NCBI RefSeq assembly: GCF_016899425.1 | Contig: NZ_CP045996.1 | Location: 372,001-436,000, forward strand | Direction: 5' to 3' | Source: Burkholderia sp. MS389 | GTDB taxonomy: Bacteria > Pseudomonadota > Gammaproteobacteria > Burkholderiales > Burkholderiaceae | Length of the DNA: 64,000 nt | Shown here: positions 1-22,614 of the stretch, in pieces | Layout: each line of letters begins with the position of its first letter | Numbering within the stretch: position 1 is the stretch's first letter | Program-made: the position numbers and the translations under genes | Notes under the pieces: model-generated | Database searches by the model: none | Told to the model about the DNA's origin: nothing | What the model saw: only the letters and a program-made list of their open reading frames with translations

Positions 1-471
1 GTCGCAGATCGGCGTTTCGCCGCCCGCGTCGGCCGGTTGCCGGCAGTAGAACGCGACGAGGCGCGGGAACGCGGGCATGTAGGCCATCTCCTGATGCAGC
101 CCGATCCTGAACGGCGGCGGCATGCGGGTCGATTCATAGACCTGGCCGTCGATCTGCCGGCGCGGGGCGGCGCCGGCCGTATAACCGTTCGCGTGCGCCG
201 GATACAGCGCGCCGAGGCGGCCGAACGCGGCGGTGTCGGGCACCGCGAAGCCGCGCCACAGCAGCGCGCCGCATGCATCGAGCAGCGTGTCGATCGTGTC
301 GAGCCGCGAGCGGTACCACGCGACGAACATCTCCGGCGACGTCGCGAGTTCGGCGCTGCGCGGCGTCACGCACAGCGGCAGCGTCGCGCCGGGCGCGACC
401 GGCGCGCACTGCACGTCGTCGGCGCCGAGCCGCACGGCCGCATGCGCGGCGAGGAAGGCGAGATCGGTCAT
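1..471 (-). CDS. TauD/clavaminate-synthase-like Fe(II)/2-oxoglutarate dioxygenase (3' end cut by window)
   Basis: Partial gene: the first 157 residues are present and the frame runs off base 1. Residues about 125-157 contain LHQEMAYMPAFPR followed by a GGETPICD stretch. This is the iron-binding His-X-Glu region and following turn of the TauD/TfdA superfamily; the Glu in place of Asp is the variant seen in clavaminate synthase and SyrP-type tailoring enzymes. The expected role is an Fe(II)- and 2-oxoglutarate-dependent hydroxylation or desaturation of a carrier-bound or free intermediate. It is the last visible gene of the leftward lipid operon, starting 3 bases after the methyltransferase stop. 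The second His and the Arg of the family lie outside the window, so activity cannot be judged. Confidence 0.8.
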   Translation of the reverse strand, partial: MTDLAFLAAHAAVRLGADDVQCAPVAPGATLPLCVTPRSAELATSPEMFVAWYRSRLDTIDTLLDACGALLWRGFAVPDTAAFGRLGALYPAHANGYTAGAAPRRQIDGQVYESTRMPPPFRIGLHQEMAYMPAFPRLVAFYCRQPADAGGETPICD

Positions 472-474
472 CGC

Positions 475-1137
475 TCAGGCCAGCGCCGGTTTCTTCAGCA
501 GGATTTCGAAGCCCAGCGCGCCGAGCCCCATGCTCGGGCTGTAGATCGACGCAACGGCAGTCAGGCCGGCTTCGGCCACCAGCGCATGCGCTTCGTCGAG
601 CGTGATCTTTTCCTCGACGTGGGTCGGCGGATAGTCGGCGGCCGCGCGCATCTCGGTGAAGCGGTCGAGCAGGTGCTGCGGCGCGTCGCGGCGCATGTCG
701 TGCACGAGCGCGATGCCGCCCGGCTCCAGCACGCGATACATCTCGGTCAGGCTGAGCGCCTTGTCGGGCAGGTGGTGCAGCGTCGCGCGGCCGACCGCCA
801 TCGTCAGCGTGCCGTCGTCGAACGGCAGCGCGAGTGCGTCGCCGACGCGCATCTCGATCGTGTCGGCGAGCCCCAGTTCGCGGATGCGCGGGCGGCCTTC
901 GTCGAGCATCGCCGGATCGAGGTCGATGCCGACGTAGCGCCAGCCGCGCATCGCCGGATCGGTCGCGAGCCGCACCGGCACGACGCCGGTGGCCGTGCCG
1001 ATATCGGCGATCGTGCCGGCCGTCATCCCGCGCGCGAGCTGGCGGATGCGACTGATGAACAGCAGGTCCCACGGTTCGAGCGTTTCGGTGGCGAAGCGAT
1101 CGTAGTCGTTCGCCGGGCGCAGGTTCTTGAGCAGCAT
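475..1137 (-). CDS. class I SAM-dependent methyltransferase
   Basis: A 220-residue protein with the class I methyltransferase order. Motif I is ADIGTATGVVPVRLA near residue 40; the acidic strand-2 end is YVGIDLDPAML; motif II is around VGDALALPFDDGTL; and LHHLPDKALSLTEMYRVLEPGG is the typical post-motif of the Methyltransf_11 group. It should transfer a methyl group from S-adenosylmethionine to a small molecule; the substrate is not readable. The start at 1137 follows the citrate-synthase-like stop by 28 bases; an upstream extension of the frame overlaps that gene and was not used. It belongs to the leftward lipid operon and is probably a tailoring enzyme. Confidence 0.85.
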   Translation of the reverse strand: MLLKNLRPANDYDRFATETLEPWDLLFISRIRQLARGMTAGTIADIGTATGVVPVRLATDPAMRGWRYVGIDLDPAMLDEGRPRIRELGLADTIEMRVGDALALPFDDGTLTMAVGRATLHHLPDKALSLTEMYRVLEPGGIALVHDMRRDAPQHLLDRFTEMRAAADYPPTHVEEKITLDEAHALVAEAGLTAVASIYSPSMGLGALGFEILLKKPALA

Positions 1138-1165
1138 GACGTTCCTTGTGCGAAAGGGTGAGGGT

Positions 1166-2413
1166 TCACAGCCAGCCGACCGGCACGGCGGCCAGCAGCC
1201 GTCGCGCGGTCGCGCTGTTGACGCCGAACGCCGGGCGGCGGCGCCGTTCCACGGCATGCGCGGCCATCGCCGCGATGCGTGCGCCGAGCCCGACGCCGAC
1301 GCCCCATGACGGCGCGGCGACGCCGAGTTCGAGCAGCGTCGCGGCGGTCAGGAAATCGATGTTCGGCCGCAGCGCGCGGCGCGCGTCGGCCTGCGCGCAG
1401 CACGCGTCGAACAGCGTCATGTATCGGCCGTCGAAGCGTGCTTCCGTCAACCGGCCACGTATGTGCGGCGGACGCGGATCGGCGACGAACAGCGGATGGC
1501 CGAAGCCGTACAGCGTACGTTTCGCGTCGACCGCCGCGTCGATCGCCGCGCGCCCGGCCGTATCGAGCGCCGCGGCCCGCGCACCGGCGCCGCCCGGCAC
1601 CGACTGCGCGAGCGCGGCGAGCCACTGCATCGCTTCGAGCGCCGCGCCGACGTGCGACGGCCCGCTCGCGAGAAAGCCGGATGCGACGGCCTGGGTCAGC
1701 GTGACGCCGGTGCCGATCGCGACGCGCGGCGCGAGCACGGTCGGCGTGATGTAGCCGAAGCCCGCGTGCCACGCGACGAGCAGCATGTCCATCGCCGCTT
1801 GCGCCGGTGCGTCGTGGCGCGTCGCGCCGGTCAGCACGAGCATGCGTTGCGCTTGTGTTTGCGCTGCGTCGAGCGCCGTGCTGCCAGCGCCCGCGCCTGC
1901 CGCGAACGGCCGGCCCTCGATCGCCGCATGCAGTAGAAACGGTGCGGCGGCCGCGCATCGCAGCATCGTGTCGAGATCGGCATCGTCCGGCGCCGCGCCA
2001 TGTACGCGTGCGGTCACGTCGTCGAGGCCGCGCAGCAGGCCGGACGCGGCCGCGAACACCGGAGCGACGCCGGCCGCGCCGAGCTCGGCCGCGACCGACT
2101 GCGCGACCGAGCCGGGCGCCAGTGCGTCGGCGAACGCGGCGAGCCGCGCGCCGATCGTCGCCTCGTGCGCGCGATGGTCGGTGCTGCCGGGCGCGACGTC
2201 GAACCACAGATGCGCGAGCGCGCCTTCGAACGTCGTCGCGCCGATCAGCGCGTTCAGGTCGAGATCGCGCACGCGCAGCGCTTCGGGGTCGAGCGTCGCG
2301 CCGTCGATGTCGGTGCCGCGATGGCGCGTCGCCGAGCGGCCGAGCAGGTTGCGCGGCGCATCGTCGGTCGCGGCGATGGTGGCGGAGGTGCCGTAATCGA
2401 GCGTCGTGTCCAT
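1166..2413 (-). CDS. citrate synthase family protein
   Basis: A 415-residue protein of the citrate synthase superfamily. The three catalytic positions of the family can be placed: His254 in GPSHVGA, His306 in LYGFGHPLF and Asp353 in RPNIDFLT. The Gly-rich motif normally reads GPLHGGA, so the first active-site loop is altered. Family knowledge: these enzymes condense an acyl-CoA with a 2-oxo acid such as oxaloacetate. In a cluster of acyl-AMP ligases, ACP and acyl-CoA dehydrogenases the likely reaction is condensation of a non-acetyl acyl thioester (alkylcitrate type) rather than the Krebs-cycle step. This is inference. It begins 1 base after the dehydrogenase stop, so it is probably translationally coupled. 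Confidence 0.8.
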   Translation of the reverse strand: MDTTLDYGTSATIAATDDAPRNLLGRSATRHRGTDIDGATLDPEALRVRDLDLNALIGATTFEGALAHLWFDVAPGSTDHRAHEATIGARLAAFADALAPGSVAQSVAAELGAAGVAPVFAAASGLLRGLDDVTARVHGAAPDDADLDTMLRCAAAAPFLLHAAIEGRPFAAGAGAGSTALDAAQTQAQRMLVLTGATRHDAPAQAAMDMLLVAWHAGFGYITPTVLAPRVAIGTGVTLTQAVASGFLASGPSHVGAALEAMQWLAALAQSVPGGAGARAAALDTAGRAAIDAAVDAKRTLYGFGHPLFVADPRPPHIRGRLTEARFDGRYMTLFDACCAQADARRALRPNIDFLTAATLLELGVAAPSWGVGVGLGARIAAMAAHAVERRRRPAFGVNSATARRLLAAVPVGWL

Positions 2414-2414
2414 G

Positions 2415-4268
2415 TCATTCCACCGCGGCGAGTTCGTCGCTGCTGACGCTGATCGCCGCGTGCGCCATCGCGGCGATCACGGCCGCATGCTGGTCGACGA
2501 CGGGCACCACGTTCGCGAAGTAGTAGCGCGCGCTTTTCAGCTTGCCGCGATAGAACGCGAGTTCGGCCGGCGCGTCGGCCGTTTCCGGCGCATCGAGCCG
2601 GCGCGCGGCGATCGTCGCGGATTCGAGCAGCACCCATGCCGACGTGACCACGCCGAACATCTCCAGAAAGCGCGTGTAGAACTGGCTGCTGCGATGCGTA
2701 TGGCCGTCCTGCACGTCGCGCGCGATGTCGTCGAGCGCGGCGGCGATGCGGTCGGCGCCCGCGCGCAGCGCATCGAACAGCGGCCGCAATTCCACATGCG
2801 TGCCGGGTTGATGCTGCTGCGCGAGGAACGCGTCGAGTTCGTCGCGGTAGTACTGGATCAGCCGCGAATGGCGACCGAAGCCGAGCTTGTCGCGCACGAG
2901 ATCCTGCGCCTGGATGTAGTTCGTGCCTTCCCAGATCGACAGGATCTTCACGTCGCGCGCGTTCTGCTCGACCGGGCTCGCATCGGTATAGCCGAGCCCG
3001 CCGTGCACCTGGATCGCCGTTTCGCAGATCCGCCACGCCTGATCGGAGATGAACGCCTTGCAGATCGGCGTCAGCAGCAGTTGCAGCTTGCGATGACGCT
3101 CGATCTCGGCCGGGTCGGCGTCCGGCGTCGCCTCGAGCATCGCCGCGCGCGTCGCGGTCGCCGCGAGCTTGCCGAGCAGGCCGCGGCAGCCGTCGACGCG
3201 GCTTTTCATGTCGACCAGCATGCGCTGCACGTCCGCGTGCTCGACGATCGCGACGCGTGCCGCGTTCGTGTTCGACGCGCGCTCGATCGGCCGGCCCTGC
3301 AGCCGGCGGCCCGCATACTCGACCGCGTGCAGGTACGCGCTCGACGCGACGCCGACGCCGAACATCCCGGTGCTCATCCGCGCCTGGTTCATCAGCGGCA
3401 TCAGCTGCAGCAGGCCGACGTTGCGGCGGCCGCCGAGCAGCCAGCCTTTCGTCGTGCCGTTCGAGCCGAACACGAGATGGGTGTTCGCGCAGCCCTTCAG
3501 CCCCATCTTGCGCGGCAGGCCGATGCAGTCGACGTGGTTCGGCTGCAGCTCGCCGGTCGTTTCGTCGGGCCAGAAGCGCGGCACGACGAGGCACGACAGC
3601 GAGAACGAATCCGGCGATGCGGTGTCGACGCGCCCGAGCACGAAGTACAGCGTGTTTTCCGTCAGCTCGTGCATGCCGGCCGAGATATAGACCTTCTCGC
3701 CGTCGATCGCGTAGATGTCGCGTTCGAGCGGCGTCGCGCGCAGCGCGACCGCGGTCAGGTCGGTGCCGGCCTGCGGTTCGGTCGCGCAGAAGCACGCATC
3801 CCAGCGGTATGCTTCGAGCGGCGCGATCAGCGCCTTCTGGTGCGGCGTGCCGTGCATCTGCAGCAGCTTGACCGCGGGGCGCGTGAAGCCGCCGTACGTC
3901 ATGAACGACGGATTCGCGCCCATGAACATCTCGTAGATCATCTGCGTGACGATCGGCGGCAGCCCGTGCGCGGTGCCGAACAGCGTGTTCGACCACTCGT
4001 CGCGAAAGCGCGCCCACAACGCGTGGAAATGCGAAGGAATCCGTACCTGGCCGTCGTCGAGCAGCGTGCAGCCCTCGACGTCCGCCTGCTGGTAGCTGCG
4101 GCCGAGGTCGAGCGCGAAATCGCGTGCGCGTTCGAGGAGCGCATCGATCGACGCGCGATCGTGCGTGCCGTACAGGCCGTGTTCCGACAGGAACCGCTTG
4201 TCGGCCTCGAACAGTTCCCACAGAAAGAAGCGCAGCTCGCGCAGGCTGACCTTGTAGGCGCTCATCAT
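2415..4268 (-). CDS. acyl-CoA dehydrogenase, large (about 600 residue) class
   Basis: A 617-residue flavoenzyme of the long acyl-CoA dehydrogenase class (DmdC/FadE5-like length). FACATEPQAGTDL-type residues near 150-165 (here CFCATEPQAGTDLTAV) form the FAD/substrate loop. IQVHGGLGYTDASPVEQNARD precedes ILSIWEGTNYIQ, whose Glu447 sits at the usual catalytic base position. About 150 further residues follow as the C-terminal helical domain of this class. It should introduce an alpha,beta double bond in an acyl-CoA or acyl-carrier thioester. The ATG at 4268 overlaps the upstream stop as ATGA; a second ATG follows directly at 4265. All expected core motifs are intact. Confidence 0.88.
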   Translation of the reverse strand: MMSAYKVSLRELRFFLWELFEADKRFLSEHGLYGTHDRASIDALLERARDFALDLGRSYQQADVEGCTLLDDGQVRIPSHFHALWARFRDEWSNTLFGTAHGLPPIVTQMIYEMFMGANPSFMTYGGFTRPAVKLLQMHGTPHQKALIAPLEAYRWDACFCATEPQAGTDLTAVALRATPLERDIYAIDGEKVYISAGMHELTENTLYFVLGRVDTASPDSFSLSCLVVPRFWPDETTGELQPNHVDCIGLPRKMGLKGCANTHLVFGSNGTTKGWLLGGRRNVGLLQLMPLMNQARMSTGMFGVGVASSAYLHAVEYAGRRLQGRPIERASNTNAARVAIVEHADVQRMLVDMKSRVDGCRGLLGKLAATATRAAMLEATPDADPAEIERHRKLQLLLTPICKAFISDQAWRICETAIQVHGGLGYTDASPVEQNARDVKILSIWEGTNYIQAQDLVRDKLGFGRHSRLIQYYRDELDAFLAQQHQPGTHVELRPLFDALRAGADRIAAALDDIARDVQDGHTHRSSQFYTRFLEMFGVVTSAWVLLESATIAARRLDAPETADAPAELAFYRGKLKSARYYFANVVPVVDQHAAVIAAMAHAAISVSSDELAAVE

Positions 4269-5359
4269 GCGTCTCCTTCGATATCGAGTGCGGCGTCGAG
4301 CCCGCCGGCCAGGTCGACGACGGCTGCTGCCGCCGCGCCATGCAGCGCTGCATCCCATACGAGCACCGTGCGGCGTTCGCCTTCGTCGAGCGCGCCCGCG
4401 AGCCGGATCAGCGCGGCGGCCGATTCGGCCGACGACAGATGGCCCGACCCGTCGTGCTGGATGCGCGCGGGGACCGGAATCGACGCGGCGTCAGCCACGC
4501 GCGCCGCGAAGCCGGGATCGAAGCCGGGCGGCACGCACCAGTCGATCTGGTTCGCACGCAGGTTGGCCTGGTCGAGCGCGCGGCGGATCGCGCGCGCGGC
4601 GACCGGCGCGAGCGTGTCGCGCAGCGTGGCCGGCGCATCGGCCCACGGATCGGCGATCGACGGCCCGAATTCGAGCGCGACGGACCGCACGCCGCCCCAC
4701 GCGGCCGGCTCGGGCGACGGGCCTGCGCGCGACACGAGCAGCGCGGCGGCCGCGTCGCCGTAGCCGACCAGGTCGCCGAACTGGCGGAAGAACGGGTAGA
4801 GCCACTTGTCGCTGAGGATCACGAGCGCCTGGTCGCCTTCGTCGCGCAGCAGCCCGTCGAGCAGCATCAGCGCCGAATACCAGCCGAGCGTGCCGTTCTG
4901 GCCGAGCGCGAACGGCGTCACGCGCTGCAGCCCGAGTTCGTACTGCATGCGGCCGACGACCGAGTCGCCGATGCCTTCGTTGAGCGCGCAACTGGCGACG
5001 ATCACATGCGTCGTGCGGGCCAGCGCGCCGGAGCCGAGCTGGTCGCGCAGGTCGAGCGCGGCATCGGCGGCGAGATCGGCGAGGCTGCGCCCGGGCGGCG
5101 CGACGCGCAGCGCGGGCCGGCCGCCCGGCGCGAGACGCGTGCCTTCGTCGGGCGTCAGCGCGCCCAGGCCGCGCGGCCGCGCAAAGCGCGCCTGCGGCAG
5201 CAGCAGGTGCCGGTAGCCGGGATGGCGCTCCTGCGCCTGGATCGCACTGAACACGACGGCGGGCGGCAGCACCACGACGCCGCCGGACAGCGCGAGCATG
5301 CCGGGCGCGGCGACGCGCGGCGCGCCGACACAGGTTTCATCGAGCGTCGACAGGGTCAT
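4265..5359 (-). CDS. ketosynthase III-like protein lacking the catalytic triad
   Basis: A 364-residue thiolase-fold protein recognisable from VIVASCALNEGIGDSVVGR, the FGDLVGYGDAAAALLVSR segment (the usual FGDGAAA loop) and a C-terminal DGSGHLSSAESAAAL segment. The nucleophile position reads GQNGTLGWYSAL, so the Cys expected in the AACAG-type motif is Asn155-Gly156. The His position reads CVPPGFD rather than VPHQAN, and the Asn position reads SGH rather than GNT. The protein therefore looks incapable of standard Cys-His-Asn Claisen condensation. It may be a structural partner, an acyl-transfer chaperone or an enzyme with different chemistry. ATGA overlaps couple it to the genes on both sides, so it is probably still translated and useful. 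Confidence 0.75.
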   Translation of the reverse strand: MTLSTLDETCVGAPRVAAPGMLALSGGVVVLPPAVVFSAIQAQERHPGYRHLLLPQARFARPRGLGALTPDEGTRLAPGGRPALRVAPPGRSLADLAADAALDLRDQLGSGALARTTHVIVASCALNEGIGDSVVGRMQYELGLQRVTPFALGQNGTLGWYSALMLLDGLLRDEGDQALVILSDKWLYPFFRQFGDLVGYGDAAAALLVSRAGPSPEPAAWGGVRSVALEFGPSIADPWADAPATLRDTLAPVAARAIRRALDQANLRANQIDWCVPPGFDPGFAARVADAASIPVPARIQHDGSGHLSSAESAAALIRLAGALDEGERRTVLVWDAALHGAAAAAVVDLAGGLDAALDIEGDA

Positions 5360-6947
5360 GCGGCGGTCTCCTCGAGGTTCGGGCGCGCGAACGCGTCGCG
5401 ATACTGCGCTTTCAGCGCCGGTCGGTCGATCTTGCCGTTCGGGTTGCGCGGCAACGCGGGCAGCGGCTCGACGACGAGCGGGTTCATGTAGGTGGGCAGC
5501 GCGTCGCGGCATGCGCGGGCGATGTCGGCGCGGCACGCGTCGGCGTCGAGCGTCGACACGACGCACGCGGCGATCGCCTCGCCGAGCGCCGGGTGCGGGA
5601 CGCCGAATACGGCAGCCTCGCGGATGTGCGGCAGCGCGAACAGCACGTCCTCGACCTCGGTCGGGCTCACGCGATAGCCGGACGTCTTGATCATGTCGTC
5701 GCCGCGCGCGACGAAGTACAGGTAGCCGTCCGCGTCGCGCCGCACGATGTCGCCGGACCACACGGCGACGTCCGGGCGCGGGATTTCGCCGTGGCGGCGC
5801 GGCAGCGGCCGAAAGCGCTGCGCGGTCAGCTCCGGCCGGTTCCAGTAGCCGAGCGTGTGACGAACGCGCCGCGATGCACGAGTTCGCCGGGCTCGTCGGC
5901 CGCGCATTCGCTGCCGTCCGCGCGCAGCACGAGGATCTCCGCGTTCGGCACGGCCTTGCCGATCGACGTCGGGCGCAGCGCCGCGTCCGCGGGCGGCAGG
6001 TAGGTCGAGCGGAACGCTTCGGTCAGCCCGTACATCAGGTACGGCGACGCCTGCGTGAACAGCGCTTGCAGGCGATGCAGCAGCGGCGTCGCGAGATGGC
6101 CGCCGGTGTTCGCGAAGCGGCGGACCCGCGTGCGTGTGCTGTCGCTCCAGCCGGCCGACGTCAGCTGCATCCACAGCGGCGGCACGCCGGTGATCGACGT
6201 GACGCCGAACGCTTCGCAATGGCGCGGCACTTCGGCCGGCTGCAGGAAGTCGAGCGGCGTATAGCACGCGCCGGACGCGAGCGCGGTCGTCAGCTGGCTC
6301 AGGCCCGCGTCGAAGCTGAGCGGCAGCACGCCGAGCACGACGTCGTCTTCGGCGAGCTGCTGGTACGCGGCGACGCTGAACGCGCCCGATACCAGGTTGC
6401 GATGCGACACGACGACGCCTTTCGGCTTGCCGGTCGAGCCCGACGTGTAGAGCAGCGCGGCCGGATCGTCGTCGACCGGGCGGCCGAAGGGGGGCGCTGC
6501 CGATGCCGACGCCGGCGCGTCGGTGTCGGCCGCTTCGATCGCATCGGCCAATTCCTCGATCAGCAGCGTGCGTTCGCCGACGAGCGCGGCGAGTGTTGGC
6601 AGGCGCTTGAGCCGCTGCGCGCCGGTCACGAACAGCGCGGCGCCGCTGTCGGCGACGATGTGTTCGATCTGCGCTTCCTTCAACTGCGGATTGACCGGCA
6701 CGAAGATCGCGCCGAGTGCGTTGGCCGCGAGCATCGCGACCACGGTTTCGATGCGCTTCGGCGCGTAGATCGCGACGCGTTCGCCGGGTCGCACGCCGCG
6801 CGAGGCGAGCGCGGCGGCGGCGCGCCGAACCGCGCGCGCGAGCTGGTCGTAAGTCAGGGTGCCGCCGCCGTCGGCATACGCCGGACGATGCGGCCAGCGC
6901 TCGGCGCCGTGTTCGAGCAGGTCGGCGATGCTGATCAATGCGTTCAT
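5356..6947 (-). pseudogene. AMP-forming acyl-CoA/acyl-ACP synthetase, frameshifted
   Basis: Two overlapping frames together give one ANL-superfamily ligase. The first part (from ATG 6947) carries TSGSTGKPKG, YGLTE and ends GELVHRGAFVT before running into a premature stop. The second part resumes at LGYWNRPELTAQRF and carries GDIVRRDADGYLYFVARGDDMIKTSGYR and the C-terminal NPNGKIDRPAL with the catalytic Lys. The break lies at the GTGTG at 5855-5859. Deleting two bases (one GT unit) restores a continuous 529-residue enzyme with a perfect family junction. Intact, it would adenylate a carboxylic acid for thioester formation. Either a natural loss-of-function change or a sequencing error; the rest of the gene shows no decay. 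It overlaps the downstream gene by ATGA. Confidence 0.8.
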
Positions 6948-6963
6948 GATCGGCTCCTCGGGT

Positions 6964-9115: not shown

Positions 9116-9116
9116 G

Positions 9117-10726: not shown

Positions 10727-10727
10727 G

Positions 10728-11603: not shown

Positions 11604-11610
11604 CGCCGTA

Positions 11611-11865: not shown

Positions 11866-11923
11866 GAGGGGAGCTCCTGGAGTTGAGTTGAATGGATCGG
11901 GATCGATCGGCCTGTCGCGTGGA

Positions 11924-13009: not shown

Positions 13010-13022
13010 GGCAGGGTTCCTG

Positions 13023-15093: not shown

Positions 15094-16307
15094 GGGGCGA
15101 GTCCTTCGAGGATGTTGCGTTTCGCGAGCCCGATCGTCGCGAGCAGCGCCGCGGCCACGCCGAGCACGACGAACGCGGCTTCGACGGCGGCCACGGCGAC
15201 GGGCGATACGGTGAATTCGAGCAGGATCGGTTTCACGCGGCCGGGCGGCGCGGGCAGGTGGATCTGCGCGTGATTGAGCGCGACCATCGTCAACAGCGCG
15301 AGCGCGATGCCGGCGGCCGCGCCGAGCAGGCCGAGCAGCGCGGTTTCCTGGATCAGCACGCCGCGCACCGTCGCGGCCGGCACGCCGAGCGCGCGCAGCG
15401 TCGAGATCTCGCGGCGCCGCTCGACGATGCTCATCAAAATCCAGTTGCTCATCGACAGCAGGATCGTCGCGCACAGAATCGCGCCGAACACCGAGAACTG
15501 GTTCTTGTACAGCGCGACGACCTGGTGATAGAGCGACACGAGCTGGTCCCAGGTCCGCACGTCGAGCGTCGGCAGCGCGGTGCGCAGCGTCGCAGCGGCG
15601 GCCGTCGTGCCGGCGGTGTCCTCGAGGAACACCGCGATGCGCGACGCGCGGTCGGTGCGCAGCAGCGCCTGCGCGGCCGTAAACGTCACGTTGACGATCC
15701 GTTCGTCGACGTCCTTGTTGCCGGTGCTCATCACGCCGACGATCTGCGCGTCGGTCGCGTTGATGCCGCCGTGCGCGGTCGACGCCATCAGCTGCACGAC
15801 CGAGCCGACGTGCACGCCGAGCTTGCGTGCGAGTTCGGCGCCGACGACGACTTCGGTCCCCGCGTTCGTCGGCGACAGATAGCGGCCCGACAGTACCGTG
15901 TGATAGTCGAAGAAGCCGGGCGGCTCGCGGTTCGGTTCGATTCCTTCGCCGACGAAGCCGTAGCTGAGATCGCCGTTCGATACGAGCCCGTCGAAGTCGA
16001 TGCCGCGCGCGGTCGTCGCGACGCCGGGCACCTTTGCAATCGCCTGCGTGGCGGCGGCCTGTTCGTCGGCGGTCAGCCCGTATTGCAGCGGCCGTTCGCC
16101 GATCAGGTCGAGGTAGCCGTGATGCAGCACCTGCACGTGGCCGACGCCGCTGTCGATCGACCCTTCGCGCACGGCATCGAACGTCGCGATCACGTAGCCG
16201 AGCGCGAGGCTCGACGCGAACGCGGCGACGCCGATCATCGCCATCGTCAGCACGGTGCGGCGCCGGTTGCGCCAGAGGTTACGCCACGCAAACGTCGACC
16301 AGTTCAC
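15090..16307 (-). CDS. FtsX-family ABC transporter permease
   Basis: A 405-residue membrane protein with the MacB/LolCE topology. A first helix is at about 20-42 (VLTMAMIGVAAFASSLALGYVI); a large periplasmic domain of about 210 residues follows; and three C-terminal helices begin near LYKNQFSVFGAILCATILL, with the cytoplasmic coupling segment SIVERRREISTLRALGVP. This class does not form a channel but uses ATP to push lipids or peptides out of the inner membrane or along a periplasmic partner. It pairs with the ATPase encoded just upstream (29-base overlap) and with the LolA-like protein just downstream (ATGA overlap). Confidence 0.9.
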   Translation of the reverse strand: MNWSTFAWRNLWRNRRRTVLTMAMIGVAAFASSLALGYVIATFDAVREGSIDSGVGHVQVLHHGYLDLIGERPLQYGLTADEQAAATQAIAKVPGVATTARGIDFDGLVSNGDLSYGFVGEGIEPNREPPGFFDYHTVLSGRYLSPTNAGTEVVVGAELARKLGVHVGSVVQLMASTAHGGINATDAQIVGVMSTGNKDVDERIVNVTFTAAQALLRTDRASRIAVFLEDTAGTTAAAATLRTALPTLDVRTWDQLVSLYHQVVALYKNQFSVFGAILCATILLSMSNWILMSIVERRREISTLRALGVPAATVRGVLIQETALLGLLGAAAGIALALLTMVALNHAQIHLPAPPGRVKPILLEFTVSPVAVAAVEAAFVVLGVAAALLATIGLAKRNILEGLAP

Positions 16308-16989
16308 GATTCACTCCCGGTACGCCGTCGCGCATCTCGATGCGGCGCGGCAGGTGCGCGCACAGACGATCGTCGTGCGACGCAATCAGAAAGGCGGTGC
16401 CCAGCGTGCGATTGGTGTCGAGGATCAGCTCGGCGACCGCCCGCGCATTCGTGCTGTCGAGGCTCGCGGTCGGCTCGTCCGCGATCACGATCGCCGGCTC
16501 CTTGGCGAGTGCGCGGGCCAGGGCGACGCGCTGCTGTTCGCCGCCGGACAGCTCGCCGGGGCGATGTCGTTCGCGCGCGGCGAGCCCCACCGCGTCGAGC
16601 ATCGCGCGCGCGCGTTCGCGCCGCGTGCGCGGCGTGCCCCATGCGAAGCAGCCGAGCTCGACGTTCTCGAGCGCCGACATCACCGGTATCAGGTTGAACT
16701 GCTGGAATACGAAGCCGATGCGTTCGCGGCGAATCCGTTCGAGCGTGTCCGGCGCATCGTCGATGCGGCGGCCTTCGAGCCAGCGTTCGCCGCTCGTCGG
16801 CACGTCGAGAAAGCCGGCGAGGTTGAGCAGCGTGCTTTTGCCGCTGCCCGACGGACCGACGAGCGCGACGACGTCGCGCCGGGCGATCGAGATCGTCGCG
16901 TCGCGCACCGCGACGACGCGGCCCGCGCCTTCGTACGTGCGTGTGACGTCGCGCAGCTCGAGCACCGGGGCCAGGGGCGCGGCCGTCAT
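16279..16989 (-). CDS. ABC transporter ATP-binding protein (LolD/MacB type)
   Basis: A 236-residue nucleotide-binding protein with all motifs: Walker A GPSGSGKST, Q-loop FVFQQFNLIPVMSALENV, signature LSGGEQQRVALARAL, Walker B IVIADEPTASLDS and switch His in IASHDDRL. The FNLIP wording is typical of the MacB/LolD subfamily that works with FtsX-type permeases. The ATG at 16989 overlaps the fatty acyl-AMP ligase stop as ATGA, and its 3' end overlaps the permease gene by 29 bases. It energises the export system of the lipid operon. Confidence 0.93.
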   Translation of the reverse strand: MTAAPLAPVLELRDVTRTYEGAGRVVAVRDATISIARRDVVALVGPSGSGKSTLLNLAGFLDVPTSGERWLEGRRIDDAPDTLERIRRERIGFVFQQFNLIPVMSALENVELGCFAWGTPRTRRERARAMLDAVGLAARERHRPGELSGGEQQRVALARALAKEPAIVIADEPTASLDSTNARAVAELILDTNRTLGTAFLIASHDDRLCAHLPRRIEMRDGVPGVNRELVDVCVA

Positions 16990-18749
16990 GCGAATGCTCC
17001 CTGGCCCGCTTCGACGGCAACCGGTGCCGCGATGACGGGCAGCGCGCCGTTCGCATAGAGATCGCGACACTTCACGCGCTGCAGCTTGCCGCTCGTCGTG
17101 CGCGGCAGCGAGCCGGGCTCGACGAAACACAGATCCTGCGCGGCGAAGCCGATGCGCGACGCGAGCAGCTGCTGGCACTCGGTGCGCGTTTGCGGCGTCG
17201 CGTCGACGGGCCGCGCCTCGATCGCGACGACCAGCCGCTCGGTGCCGGTTTCGGGATCGGGCAGCCCGAACGCGATGCACGTGCTCTTGCGCAGCGCGCT
17301 GTGCGACGCCAGCGCTTCCTCGATCTCGTGCGGGAAATAGTTGCTGCCGCGAATGATGATGACTTCCTTCTTGCGGCCGAGGATATGCAGCTGGCCGTCC
17401 GCGACGTAGCCGATGTCGCCCGTGCGGAACCAGCCGTCGGCCGTCAGCGGCGCGGCGATCGTGCCGTCGTCGGGGTTCAGGTAGCCGAGCATCACCGACG
17501 TGCCGCGGATCGCGACTTCGCCGACCGCGCGGTTCGCCAGCGCGTGGTCGCCGTCGTCGAGGATGCGGAACGCCATCCCGTCGATCGGCGTGCCCATCGC
17601 GAGCACCGTTTCGGTGTCCGTCTCGCGACCGTCGTTCGCGGCGGCCGGCTGCGCGTCGCGGCGCTCGATCAGCGCGCGCCGGTCGAGCGTGTCGGCGATC
17701 ACGTACGGCGCGCGGTCGACCGCGCCTTCGTGCCACGCGCGATGCATCGATACCGCGAGCGTCGATTCGGCCATCCCGTAGCACGGTTGCAGCGCCGATG
17801 CCGCCAGGCCGTACGGCGCGAACGTCGCGGCGAAATCGCGCAGCGTCGCGTCGTCGACGCGTTCGCCGCCGATGAAGATGTTGCGGCACGCGGACAGATC
17901 GACGCCGATCATCGCGGCCGCATTGAAGCGGCGCACGCAGTAGCGCAGCGCGAAGGTCGGCACCGACGTCGTCGTCGCGCGCGCCGACGCGATGCGCTTC
18001 AACCAGCCGAGCGGATTCCGGATGAAGCTGTTCGGCTGCATCATCAGCAGCGGCGCGCGGTAATGCAGGTTCGACAGCAGCGTGAGCAGCCCCATGTCGT
18101 GATAGAGCGGCAGCCACGACGCGGTGCCGTCGCCGGCCGCGATATCGAAGCGCACCGAGCCGCCGATGCCGAGCACGTTCGCGATCACGTTCTCGTGGCT
18201 GAGCACCGCGGCCTTCGGATGCGACGTCGAACCGGACGTGAGCTGCACATGATGCGGATCGCTGCCGCTCTTCGCGCTGATCAGTGCGCGCGCGCCGGCG
18301 TCGGCGGCATTCGACAGCGTCGCGAGATCGACCACGCGCGTTGAGGCCGCGGGAAACGCGTCGTCGCGCCACGCGGCGGCCTGCGCATCCGCGGCGACGA
18401 CGATGCGCGGCCGGTACAGCTCGCACGCGACGTCGATCACCTGCCGTCCGGCCGCCGCGCGCCGTGCGGGAACGGACACGGTGCAGGGCAGCGCACCCGT
18501 CATCACGCAGGCCATCATCGCGACCGCATGTTCGACCGACGCGGGCAGCGCCAGCATCACCAGATCGTTCTCGCGCACACCGAGCTCGCGCAGCGCGCCG
18601 GCCTGATGAAACACCGCTTCCGCGAAGCGCCGGTACGTGACGCCGGCTTCGTTGCCCGCATCGTCGACGAACGTCATGCGATGCATGGCGCCCGCGACGT
18701 CCTCGAGCGATTCGATCAGGCGATGAATGGTCGATGCGTACTTCGTCAC
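16986..18749 (-). CDS. fatty acyl-AMP ligase (FAAL), first gene of the leftward operon
   Basis: A 587-residue ANL enzyme of the FAAL/FadD32 group. It has the P-loop LTSGSTSHPKAAVLSHEN, SWLPLYHDMGLLTLL (the FAAL-type A4 wording), YGMAEST, TGDIGYVADGQLHILGRKKEVIIIRG and the C-terminal RTTSGKLQR with the adenylation Lys. Family knowledge: FAALs make acyl-adenylates and hand the chain to an ACP without CoA. The ACP encoded in the same operon is the obvious partner. I prefer a GTG start at 18749 because GGAGAACCC stands 5 bases upstream; an in-frame ATG at 18788 lacks a comparable site. It is the promoter-proximal gene, facing the divergent desaturase. Confidence 0.9.
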   Translation of the reverse strand: MTKYASTIHRLIESLEDVAGAMHRMTFVDDAGNEAGVTYRRFAEAVFHQAGALRELGVRENDLVMLALPASVEHAVAMMACVMTGALPCTVSVPARRAAAGRQVIDVACELYRPRIVVAADAQAAAWRDDAFPAASTRVVDLATLSNAADAGARALISAKSGSDPHHVQLTSGSTSHPKAAVLSHENVIANVLGIGGSVRFDIAAGDGTASWLPLYHDMGLLTLLSNLHYRAPLLMMQPNSFIRNPLGWLKRIASARATTTSVPTFALRYCVRRFNAAAMIGVDLSACRNIFIGGERVDDATLRDFAATFAPYGLAASALQPCYGMAESTLAVSMHRAWHEGAVDRAPYVIADTLDRRALIERRDAQPAAANDGRETDTETVLAMGTPIDGMAFRILDDGDHALANRAVGEVAIRGTSVMLGYLNPDDGTIAAPLTADGWFRTGDIGYVADGQLHILGRKKEVIIIRGSNYFPHEIEEALASHSALRKSTCIAFGLPDPETGTERLVVAIEARPVDATPQTRTECQQLLASRIGFAAQDLCFVEPGSLPRTTSGKLQRVKCRDLYANGALPVIAAPVAVEAGQGAFA

Positions 18750-18859
18750 GAGGGTTCTCCCGTTGCGGAACACGGCCGCTCGCGCCACGGTGCCGGCGGC
18801 GCCGTTCGTCGAGTGAGGTGGATTCTTGCCGGATCGATCGGCCGCGACAAACGGAATCT

Positions 18860-18874
18860 ATGCAGGCTATGCAT
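18860..18874. promoter_or_regulatory. candidate LysR-type operator (T-N11-A dyad)
   Basis: ATGCAGGCTATGCAT has perfect 5-base arms around a 5-base centre and contains T-N11-A (861 and 873), the generic LysR-type regulator box. It lies in the divergent promoter region of the cluster whose nearest regulator gene is a LysR protein. Binding is inferred, not shown. Confidence 0.4.
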
Positions 18875-18942
18875 GAGCGGAGCGCATCCACTCGGGGCAG
18901 CGCACATTCGTTATCAGCGTGAACGATGAATACGCGCTAGGT

Positions 18943-18969
18943 GACTGGTCTGTCTCATTCGACCGGTCG
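18943..18969. promoter_or_regulatory. paired GACYGGTC motifs, one within a 10-bp palindrome
   Basis: GACTGGTC at 18943-18950 and GACCGGTC at 18961-18968 are nearly identical and 18 bases apart. The second is the core of the perfect palindrome CGACCGGTCG (18960-18969). Two like half-sites at that spacing could be an operator for the divergent promoters. No regulator is assigned. Confidence 0.3.
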
Positions 18970-19128
18970 TCTAGTTCACGATGTGGTGCGCTCATGCGCA
19001 GGCGTCATGCAATGCGTTCGGAAAATTCGTTTGTCCGAAACATCGACTCACAGAAGAATTGCATCCCGGCAGCGCGCCAGCGCCGCCGCGTCATCGTGCC
19101 GGGCGGGGCCCGGCTCAAGGAGAGCGTC

Positions 19129-20124
19129 TTGTCCGTCACCTCATCGCTGGTCGCCCGAACGAAATCGGTTGCAGACATGAAGAGCCGCCCGAGCGGCGTG
19201 GTCTTCTCGCTGAAGCTGGCGGTGTACGTCGCGCTCATCGCGCACGGGATGATGTTCGCGCTGTCGGCGCTCGTGATCCTGAAGATCTTCGGCATCCTGC
19301 TGATCGGTGCGATGTATGCGCACGGCGTCGAACTGCAGCACCAGGCGCTGCATTACCAGGGGTTCCGCAGCAAGCGCCTGAACATGGTGTTCGGCGTGCT
19401 GCTCGGCATGCCGATGCTCGTGTCGTTCCACGCGTACCAGGACAGCCACCTGCGCCATCACCGGCTGCTCGGCACGCCGGAGAACAAGGAGTTCTTCGAC
19501 TACGGCGACCAGTACGGCGCGCGCCCGGTCGTCAATGTCGGGCTGTGGGCGTGGCGGCTGTCGATGGCCGCGCACTATATCCAGTTCGCGAAGAGCGTTG
19601 CGAAGCTCGTCGTGCCGGGCGCGCGCTTCGGCGACAACGCGCTCGTGTCGCGTGCGATCCGCCGCGACTACCTGCTGATGGCGGCGGCGATCGCGCTGCT
19701 GGCCGCGCTGTCGTTCGCGCTGCACTCGTGGTGCGTCGTCTGGGTGTGGGTCGTGCCGCTCGTGTGCGTCGCGGCGCCCGTGCATGCGCTGGTCGAGATG
19801 CCCGAGCACTACCGCTGCGACCTGACGAGCACCGACCCGTTCCGCAACACGAGGACGATCGAGAGCAATGCGTTCATGACATGGTTCACGAACGGCAACA
19901 ACTATCACGTCGAGCATCACATGATGCCGAACCTGCCGATCGAGCGCCTGCACGATCTGCATGGCGCGATCGCGCCGCGCATCCGCTATTACCACCGCAC
20001 GTACCGGCAGTTCTACTACGCGTTGCTGCGCGGCCGGCTGACGCCTCGCTCGGTGGACGACGATCGGGACGATCGCGAGCCCGATGCCGAAGCGGTTGCG
20101 CCGGCGTCCACGCAATCGGCATGA
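19129..20124 (+). CDS. membrane fatty acid desaturase (three-His-box type)
   Basis: A 331-residue integral membrane desaturase/hydroxylase. Histidine boxes are HGVELQHQALH, DSHLRHHRLLG and NNYHVEHHMMP, in the expected order, with hydrophobic helices before box 1 and between boxes 2 and 3. It should insert a double bond (or hydroxyl) into an acyl chain using a diiron centre, O2 and an electron donor. I prefer the TTG start at 19129 because AAGGAGAG ends 4 bases upstream; an ATG at 19177 is the alternative. It overlaps the next gene by ATGA, forming a two-gene divergent operon. In the recalled afc locus a desaturase gene occupies the equivalent position. Confidence 0.88.
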   Translation: MSVTSSLVARTKSVADMKSRPSGVVFSLKLAVYVALIAHGMMFALSALVILKIFGILLIGAMYAHGVELQHQALHYQGFRSKRLNMVFGVLLGMPMLVSFHAYQDSHLRHHRLLGTPENKEFFDYGDQYGARPVVNVGLWAWRLSMAAHYIQFAKSVAKLVVPGARFGDNALVSRAIRRDYLLMAAAIALLAALSFALHSWCVVWVWVVPLVCVAAPVHALVEMPEHYRCDLTSTDPFRNTRTIESNAFMTWFTNGNNYHVEHHMMPNLPIERLHDLHGAIAPRIRYYHRTYRQFYYALLRGRLTPRSVDDDRDDREPDAEAVAPASTQSA

Positions 20125-21005
20125 CTACCGCTGCCGACTATCTTGGGACGACGATGCTCTATCCGGAACTGTTCAGATCGCTCGAAGCGGTTCGCTGGGA
20201 CATGGAGAAGGACATTCCGTGGAACCGGTTCGATGCCGCGTTGCTCACCGACGAGCAGGCCGAGACGATCAGGATGAACGCGATCACCGAATGGTCGGCG
20301 CTGCCCGCGACGGAAATGTTCCTGCGCGACAACCGGCACGACAGCGACTTCTCCGCGTTCATGAGCGTGTGGTTCTTCGAGGAGCAGAAGCATTCGCTCG
20401 TGCTGATGGAATACCTGCGCCGCTTCAAGCCGGAGATGGTGCCGACCGAAGCGGAACTGCACGCGGTGCGCTTCCAGTTCGATCCGGCGCCGCCGCTCGA
20501 GACGCTGATGCTGCACTTCTGCGGCGAAATCCGCCTGAACCACTGGTACCGCTGCGCGGCCGATTGGCACACCGAGCCCGTCATCAAGCAGATTTACGAA
20601 ACGATTTCGCGCGACGAAGCGCGTCACGGCGGCGCGTACCTGCGCTATATGAAGAAAGCGCTGAACAACTGCGGCGACGTCGCCCGCGCCGCATTCGCGA
20701 AGATCGGCGTGCTGATGGCGTCGGCGCGCCGCACCGAGAAGCCGCTGCACCCGACCAACCTGCACGTGAACCAGGCGCTGTTCCCGCGCGACACCGTGCA
20801 GTCGCGCCTGCCCGATCCGGAATGGCTCGAGCGCTGGCTCGACGAGCAGATCCGTTTCGACGGCGAGTGGGAGAAGAAGGTCGTCGAGCGGATCCTGCAC
20901 AACCTGTCGATCCTGTTCGAGCGCACGTTCGCGACCGCGCAGGAACTGAACCGCTATCGCCGCGAAGTGACCGCGCGGACGAATGGCGCGTTGGGCCGCC
21001 CGTAG
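20121..21005 (+). CDS. soluble ferritin-like diiron protein (acyl-ACP desaturase/oxygenase-like)
   Basis: A 294-residue soluble helical protein. The first half-site is MNAITEWSALPATEMF with FFEEQKHSLVLMEYL (ExxH); the second is LMLHFCGEIRLNHWYR with SRDEARHGGAYLRYM (ExxH). The set of four carboxylates and two His matches carboxylate-bridged diiron enzymes such as acyl-ACP desaturase. Together with the membrane desaturase encoded just upstream (ATGA overlap) it probably oxidises the acyl chain of the cluster product at a second site. A longer continuous frame upstream reads through the desaturase gene in another frame and is not meaningful. Confidence 0.85.
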   Translation: MTTAADYLGTTMLYPELFRSLEAVRWDMEKDIPWNRFDAALLTDEQAETIRMNAITEWSALPATEMFLRDNRHDSDFSAFMSVWFFEEQKHSLVLMEYLRRFKPEMVPTEAELHAVRFQFDPAPPLETLMLHFCGEIRLNHWYRCAADWHTEPVIKQIYETISRDEARHGGAYLRYMKKALNNCGDVARAAFAKIGVLMASARRTEKPLHPTNLHVNQALFPRDTVQSRLPDPEWLERWLDEQIRFDGEWEKKVVERILHNLSILFERTFATAQELNRYRREVTARTNGALGRP

Positions 21006-21624
21006 CGGATCGATACAGGCAGCCCGTCGCGCGGTGCGGGCCGAAATCCCGCCGACATCCGAACGCCATGCGGCCGAACGGCGCTACCGGCAGGCGAATT
21101 AATCATTCCAGACATAATCGGCGCATCAGTTGCTTGAAATTGCATGGCAGCTTTGAAATTCATTCGTTTAGCATATTTATGTAAACACGGAATTCCGGAT
21201 TTAGATGGCATTTTCGTGTATGTTACCGACCGGTTGTCTTTCGCAGTCCGGGAAAATAAATTTAAAAGTTGGCCGATTGAAATTGAATTGTAGGAATCGG
21301 ATGATGCATCTGATTGTGCGACGAGATCGACGTGATAGCGTCGAATTCTGGCGGTAATCCTCTGTTTTTTAAGGAGTTTGTCGACTATTTGAAGTGCTGG
21401 ATTCGTTCTCATATTAATTTACAAAATCACTACCTGGATAATGTTCATGTAAGGATATCATTGCGATCAAAATCGATAGATAAATACAAGTGTCACGATT
21501 GAAAATAAGAATGATGTGCATCCATGCTTCAATATAAAATCGTTTCCGAATCCAAATGGGAGAGACGATTCAGGGAGACGAACGGCGACTTATCGGTCGA
21601 TGGGTGCAACTTTGAGGCGGCGGT
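21006..21624. other. AT-rich intergenic region before the LysR gene
   Basis: These 619 bases are visibly AT-rich (long A/T runs around 21160-21500) in contrast to the surrounding coding DNA. No coding frame with a ribosome site or family resemblance was seen. The region should hold the regulator's promoter; AT-rich upstream DNA is typical of H-NS-bound accessory regulators. Confidence 0.6.
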
Positions 21625-22614
21625 ATGGCTAATGTGAGATTGGCAAAGCGATTGAGAAGTCTGCCTTCGCTGGATTTCCTGAGAGGCTTCGAATGCGCGG
21701 CGCGCCATTTGAGCTTCACGCGGGCGGGGCAGGAACTGAACGTCACGCAATCGGCCGTGAGTCGGCAGGTCAAGGCGCTCGAAGAGCAGCTCCGGATCGA
21801 GCTGTTCCATCGGCACATTCGTTCGTTGACGCTGACCGACAAGGGGCGCGAGCTGTACGACGCGATCTCGTTCGCGTTGTCCGACCTGGAATCGGTGGTC
21901 GGTAAGCTGTCGTCGAGTGTCGGCCAGCGCGCCATCTCGTTGTCGACCACCGTCTCGTTCGCCGCGCTGTGGCTGATTCCACGCCTCGGTTCGTTTCGCG
22001 CCAGCTATCCGGACATCGACGTGCGCGTGTCGGCCACGAGCGAAATCGAAGATCTCAAACGCAAACGTTTGCACCTGGCCGTGCGCTATGCAGGCCCGTA
22101 TACGTCGACCGACGATACGGACGTGCTGTTTCGCGAGCGTGTCGTCGCGGTGTGCAGCCCGAGCCTGGTGGCGGCGGGCGACGCCGCGTCGATGAAGCCG
22201 GCCGACCTCGACAAGCACGTGCTGCTGCATCTCGACGACCCGCGCGGCGAATGGCCGTGGCACGGCTGGAGCCATTTGCTGAAGGCGCTCGGCGTGCCGC
22301 GGCTGCGGCCGGTCGGCGCGCTGCACTTCAGCCAGTACGATCAACTGGTCCAGGCCGCGGTCGACGGCCACGGTATCGCGATCGGCAGGCGGCCCCTCGT
22401 CGACGGGCTGTTGAAGCAGGGGCGGCTCGTCGAGCTGTTCCCGCACTGCACCGTTGCATCGGGCAGCTACGTGCTCGTGCAGAACCCCGATGCGTGCAAC
22501 GAATTCGATATCGCGGTGCTGACCAACTGGTTGCTCGAACAAGCGTGTCATTCGCTCGAGGAGGAGCCGGGCATCGCCGGCAGCAACGTGCTGCCGATGT
22601 ACCGCGTCGGATAG
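21625..22614 (+). CDS. shvR: LysR-family transcriptional regulator (ShvR-like by context)
   Basis: A 329-residue LysR regulator. The N-terminal winged helix-turn-helix is clear (FECAARHLSFTRAGQELN, TQSAVSRQVKALEEQL, LFHRHIRSLTLTDKG), then a linker helix and a two-lobe effector domain (SLSTTVSFAALWLIPRL to about 300). The wording around FLRGFECAARHLSFTRAG places it in the GcvA-like subgroup. It lies just beyond the desaturase/diiron operon, the position of ShvR in the B. cenocepacia afc locus as I recall it; the symbol rests on that context. It probably controls the divergent lipid operons and perhaps itself. Confidence 0.8.
   Translation: MANVRLAKRLRSLPSLDFLRGFECAARHLSFTRAGQELNVTQSAVSRQVKALEEQLRIELFHRHIRSLTLTDKGRELYDAISFALSDLESVVGKLSSSVGQRAISLSTTVSFAALWLIPRLGSFRASYPDIDVRVSATSEIEDLKRKRLHLAVRYAGPYTSTDDTDVLFRERVVAVCSPSLVAAGDAASMKPADLDKHVLLHLDDPRGEWPWHGWSHLLKALGVPRLRPVGALHFSQYDQLVQAAVDGHGIAIGRRPLVDGLLKQGRLVELFPHCTVASGSYVLVQNPDACNEFDIAVLTNWLLEQACHSLEEEPGIAGSNVLPMYRVG

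What the first reader, a model, noticed from the sequence alone, without database searches (positions are those of the whole stretch)
1..22614. Complete lipid natural-product locus of the afc/shvR kind with unassigned product
Eighteen leftward and two rightward genes encode loading (FAAL, second AMP-ligase, ACP), chain modification (two dehydrogenase-type proteins, two desaturase-type proteins, diiron oxygenase, 2-OG dioxygenase, methyltransferase), condensation (three ketosynthase-like, one citrate-synthase-like), decarboxylation and export. There is no multimodular PKS or NRPS. The layout agrees with my recollection of the B. cenocepacia afc locus controlled by ShvR. Gene content predicts a modified fatty acid or acyl-amine type product, and I know of no fully settled pathway.
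Basis: partly seen in the sequence, partly recalled or inferred. Interest (0 to 1): 0.75.

Follow-up and report, generated by a model that had tools for sequence, protein, structure and literature searches.

The report
Known antifungal lipopeptide cluster, one gene broken
This is the already described Burkholderia gene cluster for the antifungal lipopeptide AFC-BC11, not an unassigned pathway, but in this genome sequence the gene for the enzyme that starts the peptide looks broken, so the compound may not be made.

Summary
The finding names the locus correctly but is wrong that its product is unassigned. Window 1-22614 lies on a 1.18 Mb third contig of a Burkholderia cepacia-complex-like genome and holds the afc/ShvR cluster. 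Eleven named relatives share its gene order (ten Burkholderia; Robbsia with some rearrangement), and published B. cenocepacia locus tags fit gene by gene (afcE BCAS0208, afcA BCAS0222, shvR BCAS0225). The product, AFC-BC11, was published in 2025 (PMC12186527): an N-acyl tetrapeptide made by a thiotemplated route without condensation domains.

Three corrections. The cluster is not complete in the window: most of afcU and all of afcV, W, X and F lie to its left. Two ORFs that look like afcB and afcD are shadow frames of the real genes. And afcQ, the L-Asp-activating enzyme, is split between two reading frames, whereas 20 of 20 other genus genomes with AfcQ at 65% identity or more have it whole. 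This genome has no close second afcQ.

In an audit of 22 clusters, the four internal frame breaks left after setting aside nine near gene starts all fell in afcQ or afcR. That is suggestive of recurrent loss; sequencing error is not excluded.

The parts
1..471 (-). afcU, Fe/2-oxoglutarate (TauD-type) dioxygenase, 3' part only in the window (full gene L007 13398-14471)
   Evidence: PF02668 8.8e-35; 72-97% identical in 11 relatives
475..1257 (-). afcT, SAM O-methyltransferase
   Evidence: PF08241 3e-17; role from PMC12186527
1166..2413 (-). afcS, citrate-synthase-like
   Evidence: PF00285 4.6e-21
2415..4358 (-). afcE, acyl-CoA dehydrogenase (BCAS0208 type)
   Evidence: PF12806 4.5e-22, PF00441 2.9e-20; 23 of 398 family genomes at 1e-130
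4265..5761 (-). afcR, KAS III-like (Thr/His/Glu) in PMC12186527; the upstream third of this ORF overlaps afcQ and is probably not coding
   Evidence: no Pfam or NCBIfam match; about 365 residues conserved, 91-97% in the nearer species; frame-broken in G022 and L079
5356..6267 (-). afcQ, 3' part: ORF holding the C-terminal AMP-binding_C domain, in a different frame from the next part
   Evidence: PF13193 6.5e-15; matches residues 358-524 of B. puraquae AfcQ at 96%
5826..6947 (-). afcQ, 5' part: AMP-binding domain of the L-Asp adenylating enzyme; the frame changes near residue 360 of about 525
   Evidence: PF00501 7.1e-82; matches residues 1-361 of B. puraquae AfcQ at 91%
6964..8136 (-). afcP, PLP-dependent decarboxylase
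   Evidence: PF00278 1.5e-9, PF02784 1.1e-8
8126..9115 (-). afcO, KAS III-like
   Evidence: PF08545 1.2e-5; query of the genome scan
9117..10103 (-). afcN, AurF-type diiron protein (ORF runs further upstream, but that stretch overlaps afcM)
   Evidence: PF11583 4.9e-15; 71% match also in the bolagladin-type genome G025
10100..10726 (-). afcM, 208 aa, essential in PMC12186527, family unknown
   Evidence: no Pfam, NCBIfam or PDB sequence match; AF2 model pLDDT 72.5 without a significant fold match
10728..11603 (-). afcL, KAS III-like acyltransferase (assignment from PMC12186527)
   Evidence: no Pfam match here; conserved in 22 clusters
11611..11865 (-). afcK, sole carrier protein, Ser40
   Evidence: PF00550 6.6e-7; Ser40 invariant in 5 aligned copies
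11924..13000 (-). afcJ, dehydrogenase-type in PMC12186527 (ORF runs to 13120)
   Evidence: no Pfam/NCBIfam match; no match in G025
13023..14360 (-). afcI, outer-membrane channel (assignment from PMC12186527)
   Evidence: no Pfam match; conserved in 22 clusters
14350..15474 (-). afcH, LolA-like (true start probably downstream; upstream part overlaps afcG)
   Evidence: PF17131 3.4e-23
15090..16307 (-). afcG, MacB/FtsX-type permease
   Evidence: PF12704 8.7e-14, PF02687 1.6e-13
16279..16995 (-). afcB, ABC ATPase (the 250-aa ORF 16304-17056 is a shadow frame)
   Evidence: PF00005 7.2e-31; stop-free in 22 of 22 clusters, the shadow frame has stops in 11 of 21 others
16986..18788 (-). afcA, fatty acyl-AMP ligase (BCAS0222 type)
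   Evidence: PF00501 1.4e-49
18919..20124 (+). afcC, membrane fatty-acid-desaturase type (true start probably downstream)
   Evidence: PF00487 2.9e-38
20136..21005 (+). afcD, acyl-ACP-desaturase/AurF-like (the 366-aa ORF 20084-21184 is a shadow frame)
   Evidence: PF03405 1.2e-7, PF11583 1e-6; stop-free in 21 of 21 clusters matched, the shadow frame has stops in 16 of 20 others
21625..22614 (+). shvR, LysR-type regulator (BCAS0225 type)
   Evidence: PF03466 4.5e-29, PF00126 3e-21; ortholog in 11 of 11 named genomes, 64-97%
22667..23581 (+). alpha/beta hydrolase (BCAS0226 type), flanking gene, not core
   Evidence: PF00561 2e-25; beside shvR in 7 of 12 relatives' stretches

Best explanation
This is the known afc/ShvR biosynthetic cluster of the Burkholderia cepacia complex, directing synthesis and export of the antifungal lipopeptide AFC-BC11. 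Working model from PMC12186527: AfcQ adenylates L-Asp (side-chain carboxylate) and loads it on the single carrier AfcK; AfcP decarboxylates it to beta-Ala; AfcQ repeats; the FAAL AfcA puts a C14 acyl chain on the trimer; AfcL passes the chain to Lys-CoA; AfcC desaturates Lys; AfcS, AfcF and AfcT are needed for the O-methyl-malate end; AfcE is proposed to desaturate the beta-Ala units. AfcB/G/H/I and AfcV/W look like membrane export. In this genome sequence the afcQ frame is broken near residue 360 of about 525, which parts the AMP-binding domain from the C-terminal domain that carries the catalytic lysine. If the sequence is right, the strain should not load L-Asp and should make no AFC-BC11. 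Shown here: gene content, order, conservation, the frame break in the held sequence, no close second afcQ. Shown by others: product and core chemistry. Inferred: the export role, and that this strain is a non-producer. Confidence given is for the whole conditional statement; that the locus is afc I put at 0.97, that the break is real in the living strain at about 0.6.
For: Gene order and identity in 11 named relatives and 22 clusters; ShvR in 11 of 11; locus tags BCAS0204, 0207, 0208, 0222, 0225, 0226 fit the gene count and types; published product and chemistry; AfcK Ser40 conserved. Break: two domains in two frames, two separate matches to intact AfcQ in the own genome, none above 37% elsewhere in it, 20 of 20 other genus genomes with AfcQ at 65% or more in one frame, the 11 named relatives in frame, no long single-base run at the break.
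Against: The product was not observed in this strain. The break could be an assembly or sequencing error: both parts stay well conserved (N-part dN/dS 0.21-0.26 against 0.13 between two intact relatives; C-part 0.00-0.09), so there is no clear decay. All other 24 genes of the cluster are intact here.
Confidence: 0.9

Rival explanations
1. The afc cluster is intact in the living strain; afcQ is split only by a sequencing or assembly error, and AFC-BC11 is made normally.
For: One frame change in otherwise intact genes; both pieces conserved; two of the other three breaks sit together in one plasmid record, L079, as a local assembly problem would give. The region is rich in G+C (afcQ 71%, afcR 74%).
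Against: No single-base run longer than 2 lies at the window's break, so it is not the commonest kind of error; afcS is as rich in G+C (75%) and has no break.
Confidence: 0.35
2. afcQ works as two polypeptides, the adenylation core and the C-terminal domain made separately.
For: Both domains are whole and conserved as pieces.
Against: All 20 other genus genomes with AfcQ at 65% identity or more have one polypeptide. I did not test for a ribosome-binding or start site for the second piece.
Confidence: 0.03
3. The locus makes something else, such as a bolagladin-type lipodepsipeptide or a simple modified fatty acid or amine.
For: Nine genes (D, O, P, Q, R, E, S, T, U) are shared, in order, with the bolagladin-type locus G025, and N and F lie near it.
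Against: No multimodular NRPS in the window cluster; afcA, J, K, L, M and the rest of the afc set present at high identity to the published AFC-BC11 producer species B. puraquae.
Confidence: 0.02

Closest known systems
afc/ShvR cluster for AFC-BC11 (B. orbicola Mc0-3, B. puraquae, B. pyrrocinia, B. cenocepacia; PMC12186527, PMC6301696)
   Same: Gene set A-X plus shvR, two divergent operons, gene order, third-replicon location, carrier Ser40; most proteins 85-100% identical in the nearest species.
   Different: afcQ is in two frames in the window sequence.
Bolagladin (bol) cluster of B. gladioli (PMC7756342)
   Same: Shares the VinN-type adenylation enzyme, PLP decarboxylase, two KAS III-like proteins, acyl-CoA dehydrogenase, citrate-synthase-like, methyltransferase and dioxygenase genes in the same order (as seen in the bolagladin-type locus G025).
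   Different: bol has a tetramodular NRPS and one dehydro-beta-alanine; the window has none of the NRPS. afcJ and afcM have no match in G025.
Shorter afc-like cluster described in the B. pseudomallei group (PMC6301696); G047 here has such a layout
   Same: A, J-X core in the same order.
   Different: G047 lacks B, G, H, I, C and D, and has no close afcF (best 35%) in the stretch or genome searched.
Vicenistatin VinN adenylation enzyme (PDB 3wv4/3wv5; the name VinN for these entries is recalled, the listing says 'Non-ribosomal peptide synthetase')
   Same: AfcQ N-part matches at 5.1e-34; PMC12186527 calls AfcQ VinN-type.
   Different: In the window the C-terminal domain lies in another frame.

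Membership tests
afc/ShvR cluster (AFC-BC11) | ShvR-type LysR gene beside the cluster | tested here: met
   21625-22614; ortholog in 11 of 11 named genomes; in B. puraquae, TSV86 and singularis it lies on another contig than the cluster, at a contig break
afc/ShvR cluster (AFC-BC11) | About 24 afc genes in two divergent operons | tested here: met
   24 afc genes A-X counted with the left extension; afcX, W, V, F and most of U lie outside the window
afc/ShvR cluster (AFC-BC11) | Gene order equal to BCAS0204-BCAS0226 of B. cenocepacia | tested here: met
   tags and types against the window order; DNA of B. cenocepacia records L011 and L079 colinear
afc/ShvR cluster (AFC-BC11) | Single carrier protein with Ser40 | tested here: met
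afc/ShvR cluster (AFC-BC11) | Whole VinN-type adenylation enzyme AfcQ | tested here: not met
   split between two frames in the held sequence; sequencing error not excluded. The filing as an afc locus rests on descent and gene order, not on activity
afc/ShvR cluster (AFC-BC11) | No condensation domains | tested here: met
   none in Pfam scans of the cluster proteins
afc/ShvR cluster (AFC-BC11) | Location on the third replicon pC3 | tested here: met
   contig C3 of 1,180,421 bases beside contigs of 3.56 and 3.00 Mb
afc/ShvR cluster (AFC-BC11) | Production of AFC-BC11 and control by ShvR | not testable with these tools
   needs cultures and LC-MS
Bolagladin cluster | Tetramodular NRPS BolH | tested here: not met
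   no NRPS in the window cluster; four A domains present in G025
KAS III/thiolase fold for AfcM | Clear fold match | tested here: inconclusive

The most novel reading that the evidence does not exclude
afcQ-afcR is a recurrent point of loss of the AFC lipopeptide: independent strains have switched the pathway off by frame breaks in the step that begins the peptide, or in its neighbour, while the rest of the cluster stays intact. This would be a genetic off-state beside shvR mutation and pC3 loss, and it would mean that presence of the afc cluster does not predict the antifungal and virulence phenotype.
Probability: 0.17. Interest if true: 0.5.

Novelty: already known. Interest (0 to 1): 0.3.

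Why it matters
What remains useful: (1) a genome can carry a nearly whole afc cluster and still probably not make the compound, so cluster presence should not be read as production or virulence; (2) subtracting the bolagladin-type locus leaves afcJ and afcM as genes essential for AFC-BC11 (PMC12186527) and absent from that genome, which points them to the tri-beta-alanine or lysine part and not to the fatty-acid tail; (3) the cluster also sits in Robbsia and in one further, unnamed genus of the family, widening where this antifungal chemotype can be sought.

Tried and rejected
(1) The alpha/beta hydrolase after shvR as the missing final release enzyme: rejected as a general answer. It is beside shvR in 7 of 12 relatives' stretches, and of the six relatives whose whole genomes I searched, five have no ortholog (metallica, cepacia LK29, TSV86, singularis, Robbsia; best 35% or none) and B. 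puraquae has one (88%) (these six were chosen as five without it beside shvR, plus B. puraquae). (2) A single-base-run switch in afcQ/afcR: not supported. No gene of the cluster has a run of 8 or more; afcQ has a run of 7 in one genome; the longest run at any of the four breaks is 4. (3) My first models of afcB (250 aa) and afcD (366 aa) were shadow frames, noticed from stops in relatives and corrected; searches are superseded for those two genes. The first about 90 residues of afcF as I read it overlap afcX and are probably not coding. (4) AfcM fold: nothing significant. (5) A first ORF-based frame test was noisy from shadow ORFs; replaced. Rows dropped before the count of four breaks: 9 of 13 flagged rows, all near the query start (8 afcC, 1 afcB in G018; junctions within about 30 residues); the afcB one could be real. 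Two in-frame stops near the start of afcF (B. puraquae, Robbsia) were read as start-site effects. (6) Literature: searches (terms Burkholderia, shiny, afc, frameshift; 2 papers, listing only; afcQ, AFC-BC11, afc cluster, shvR since 2019; 508 papers hold a term, 25 listed, most unrelated) and a word search of PMC12186527 showed no report of afcQ loss; most subscription papers are not held. Papers seen: PMC12186527 parts 1-3 of 5 plus word searches; PMC7756342 parts 2 and 3 of 5; PMC6301696, PMC2753556, PMC12096841, PMC6829993, PMC11925244 passages only; others as listings.


Full report
What the locus is. The window is positions 372001-436000 of contig C3 (1,180,421 bases) of a three-contig, 7.75 Mb genome. 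Pfam scans give a fatty acyl-AMP ligase, a second AMP-binding enzyme, a carrier protein, a PLP decarboxylase, a KAS III-like protein, a citrate-synthase-like protein, a methyltransferase, an acyl-CoA dehydrogenase, an AurF-type diiron protein, a TauD dioxygenase, a membrane desaturase, a MacB/FtsX permease, a LolA-like protein and a LysR regulator, and after correction of two gene models an ABC ATPase (afcB) and an acyl-ACP-desaturase/AurF-like protein (afcD). AfcI, J, L, M and R had no family match; their types are taken from PMC12186527. No condensation, PKS or multimodular NRPS domain was seen in these scans.

Membership. A scan of the genome collection (one genome for each of 84,980 species; finds close relatives only) with the protein at 8126-9115 returned 11 loci: ten Burkholderia (anthina, BCC0506, metallica, cenocepacia, cepacia, arboris, lata, puraquae, TSV86, singularis) and Robbsia andropogonis. 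In all 11, afcA to afcV lie colinear with the window in the 20 kb fetched. Over whole clusters most proteins are 85-100% identical in the nearest species, 64-94% in TSV86 and singularis and 50-92% in Robbsia (with afcB and afcD corrected). A ShvR ortholog (64-97%) is in 11 of 11 of these genomes, on a separate contig at a contig break in B. puraquae, TSV86 and singularis. Published tags agree with the gene count: ABC transporter BCAS0204, citrate synthase BCAS0207, afcE BCAS0208, afcA BCAS0222, shvR BCAS0225, hydrolase BCAS0226 (PMC6301696 and PMC2753556, passages); the window has 18 genes from afcE to shvR when afcQ is counted once. This is the afc/ShvR cluster.

Product and mechanism. PMC12186527 (parts 1-3 of 5 read) reports that afc makes AFC-BC11: an O-methyl-malate fatty acyl chain on three dehydro-beta-alanines and a dehydro-lysine. 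In vitro, AfcQ activates L-Asp and loads the sole carrier AfcK, AfcP decarboxylates, AfcQ iterates, AfcA acylates the trimer, and AfcL passes a tri-beta-alanyl chain to Lys-CoA; deletions bear on AfcC, AfcS, AfcF and AfcT; AfcE is proposed to form the dehydro-beta-alanines. Final release, the tail chemistry and the roles of AfcJ, M, N and O are open in that paper. AfcK Ser40 is conserved here.

Corrections to the finding. The operon continues left of the window: afcV, W, X and F and most of afcU lie in L007 9300-14000. The 250-aa frame at 16304-17056 and the 366-aa frame at 20084-21184 are shadow ORFs: stops interrupt them in 11 of 21 and 16 of 20 other clusters matched, while the true afcB (16279-16995) and afcD (20136-21005) frames are stop-free in every match (22 of 22 clusters for afcB; 21 for afcD, three of these being short pieces at contig ends; Robbsia has no afcD match). 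With these models every gene shows its differences mainly at third codon positions (54-84%, lowest for afcF).

The broken gene. afcQ is split here. The AMP-binding domain lies in the ORF 5826-6947 and the AMP-binding_C domain in another frame within 5356-6267. With the intact 524-aa AfcQ of B. puraquae as query, 30 of 65 genus genomes match at 1e-80 or better. Of the 21 with 65% identity or more, 20 have it in one open frame; the window genome gives two pieces (residues 1-361 at 91%, 358-524 at 96%) in different frames. The own genome has no other match above 37%. PMC12186527 names Lys503 as catalytic, which falls in the part that is out of frame. If the sequence is correct, L-Asp loading should fail and no AFC-BC11 be made; this is inference. 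dN/dS for the N-part is 0.21-0.26 in five window-relative comparisons, against 0.13 in the one comparison between two intact relatives, and 0.00-0.09 for the C-part (0.07 between the intact pair): no strong decay, so the break is recent or is an error.

Audit of 22 clusters. 25 proteins (24 from the window, AfcQ from B. anthina) were compared with the window, 18 genus genomes, two plasmid records (B. cenocepacia CMCC(B)23006, L079; B. arboris MEC_B345, L127) and Robbsia; 546 of 550 possible gene copies were found. Thirteen rows were flagged as frame changes. Nine have their junction within about the first 30 query residues (8 afcC, 1 afcB in G018) and were set aside as uncertain starts. The other four are window afcQ, L079 afcQ, L079 afcR and G022 afcR. 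These two genes are 892 of 8775 query residues, so four of four in them would be about 1 in 10,000 for a pair named beforehand and a few in 1,000 if any adjacent pair is allowed (my arithmetic, not a call); if the two L079 breaks are one event the figures weaken about tenfold, and if the set-aside afcB row is real they weaken further. No long single-base run sits at any break (longest 4). This is suggestive of a recurrent point of loss, in line with known shiny variants that lose antifungal activity (PMC12096841, passage), but local assembly trouble in G+C-rich DNA is not excluded.

Relatives that help assign genes. G025 carries four A-domain modules followed by D, O, P, Q, R, E, S, T and U, with N (71%) and F (51%) nearby. 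afcJ and afcM have no match in that genome at the thresholds used. Both are essential for AFC-BC11, so the subtraction points them to steps that bolagladin lacks (trimer or lysine) and not to the citrate-derived tail. AfcM was found in 1 of 399 genomes sampled across the order, the own one (few other Burkholderia were in that sample), and in the afc clusters read here; it has no recognisable fold. AfcE at 1e-130 is in 23 of 398 family genomes, in 3 of 25 genera. G047 has a shorter cluster without B, G, H, I, C and D, and no close afcF. G566, in another genus than Burkholderia, has A-X (C not seen) and F at 42-85%, with part of D at the contig edge and a stop inside the W match; shvR was not seen in that stretch, and its AfcE match also counts one stop. 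Robbsia has the shvR ortholog between afcA and afcC and no afcD in the stretch read.

Verdict. An already described cluster with a published product; ordinary as a find. The point of note is the afcQ break and the small grouping of breaks in afcQ/afcR, which reads or PCR would settle.

Noticed in passing
L079 (B. cenocepacia CMCC(B)23006 plasmid unnamed2) and L097/L098 (G022): Frame breaks in afcQ and afcR (L079) and in afcR (G022), with the other afc genes intact apart from start-site flags.
   Followed up: partly
L139-L140 (G566, another genus of the family): A nearly whole afc cluster (A, B, G-X, F, part of D) at 42-85% protein identity outside Burkholderia.
   Followed up: partly
L018, L077, L078 (Robbsia andropogonis): afc cluster with shvR ortholog placed between afcA and afcC and no afcD in the stretch read.
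   Followed up: partly
L088, L141, L142 (G058): A divergent afc-like gene set (E, Q, V, W, K, P, two L-like, O-like, B-like at 29-53% identity) without a FAAL or citrate-synthase match: a possible different product.
   Followed up: no
L085, L086, L087, L089 (G052, G075, G012, G025): A second kind of VinN-like adenylation locus (about 48-51% to AfcQ) with KAS III-like and PLP-decarboxylase-like neighbours, in several Burkholderia genomes.
   Followed up: no
window 14350-16995: afcB-G-H look like a Lol-type set (ABC ATPase, FtsX-type permease, LolA-like carrier), as if the lipopeptide were moved the way lipoproteins are.
   Followed up: no
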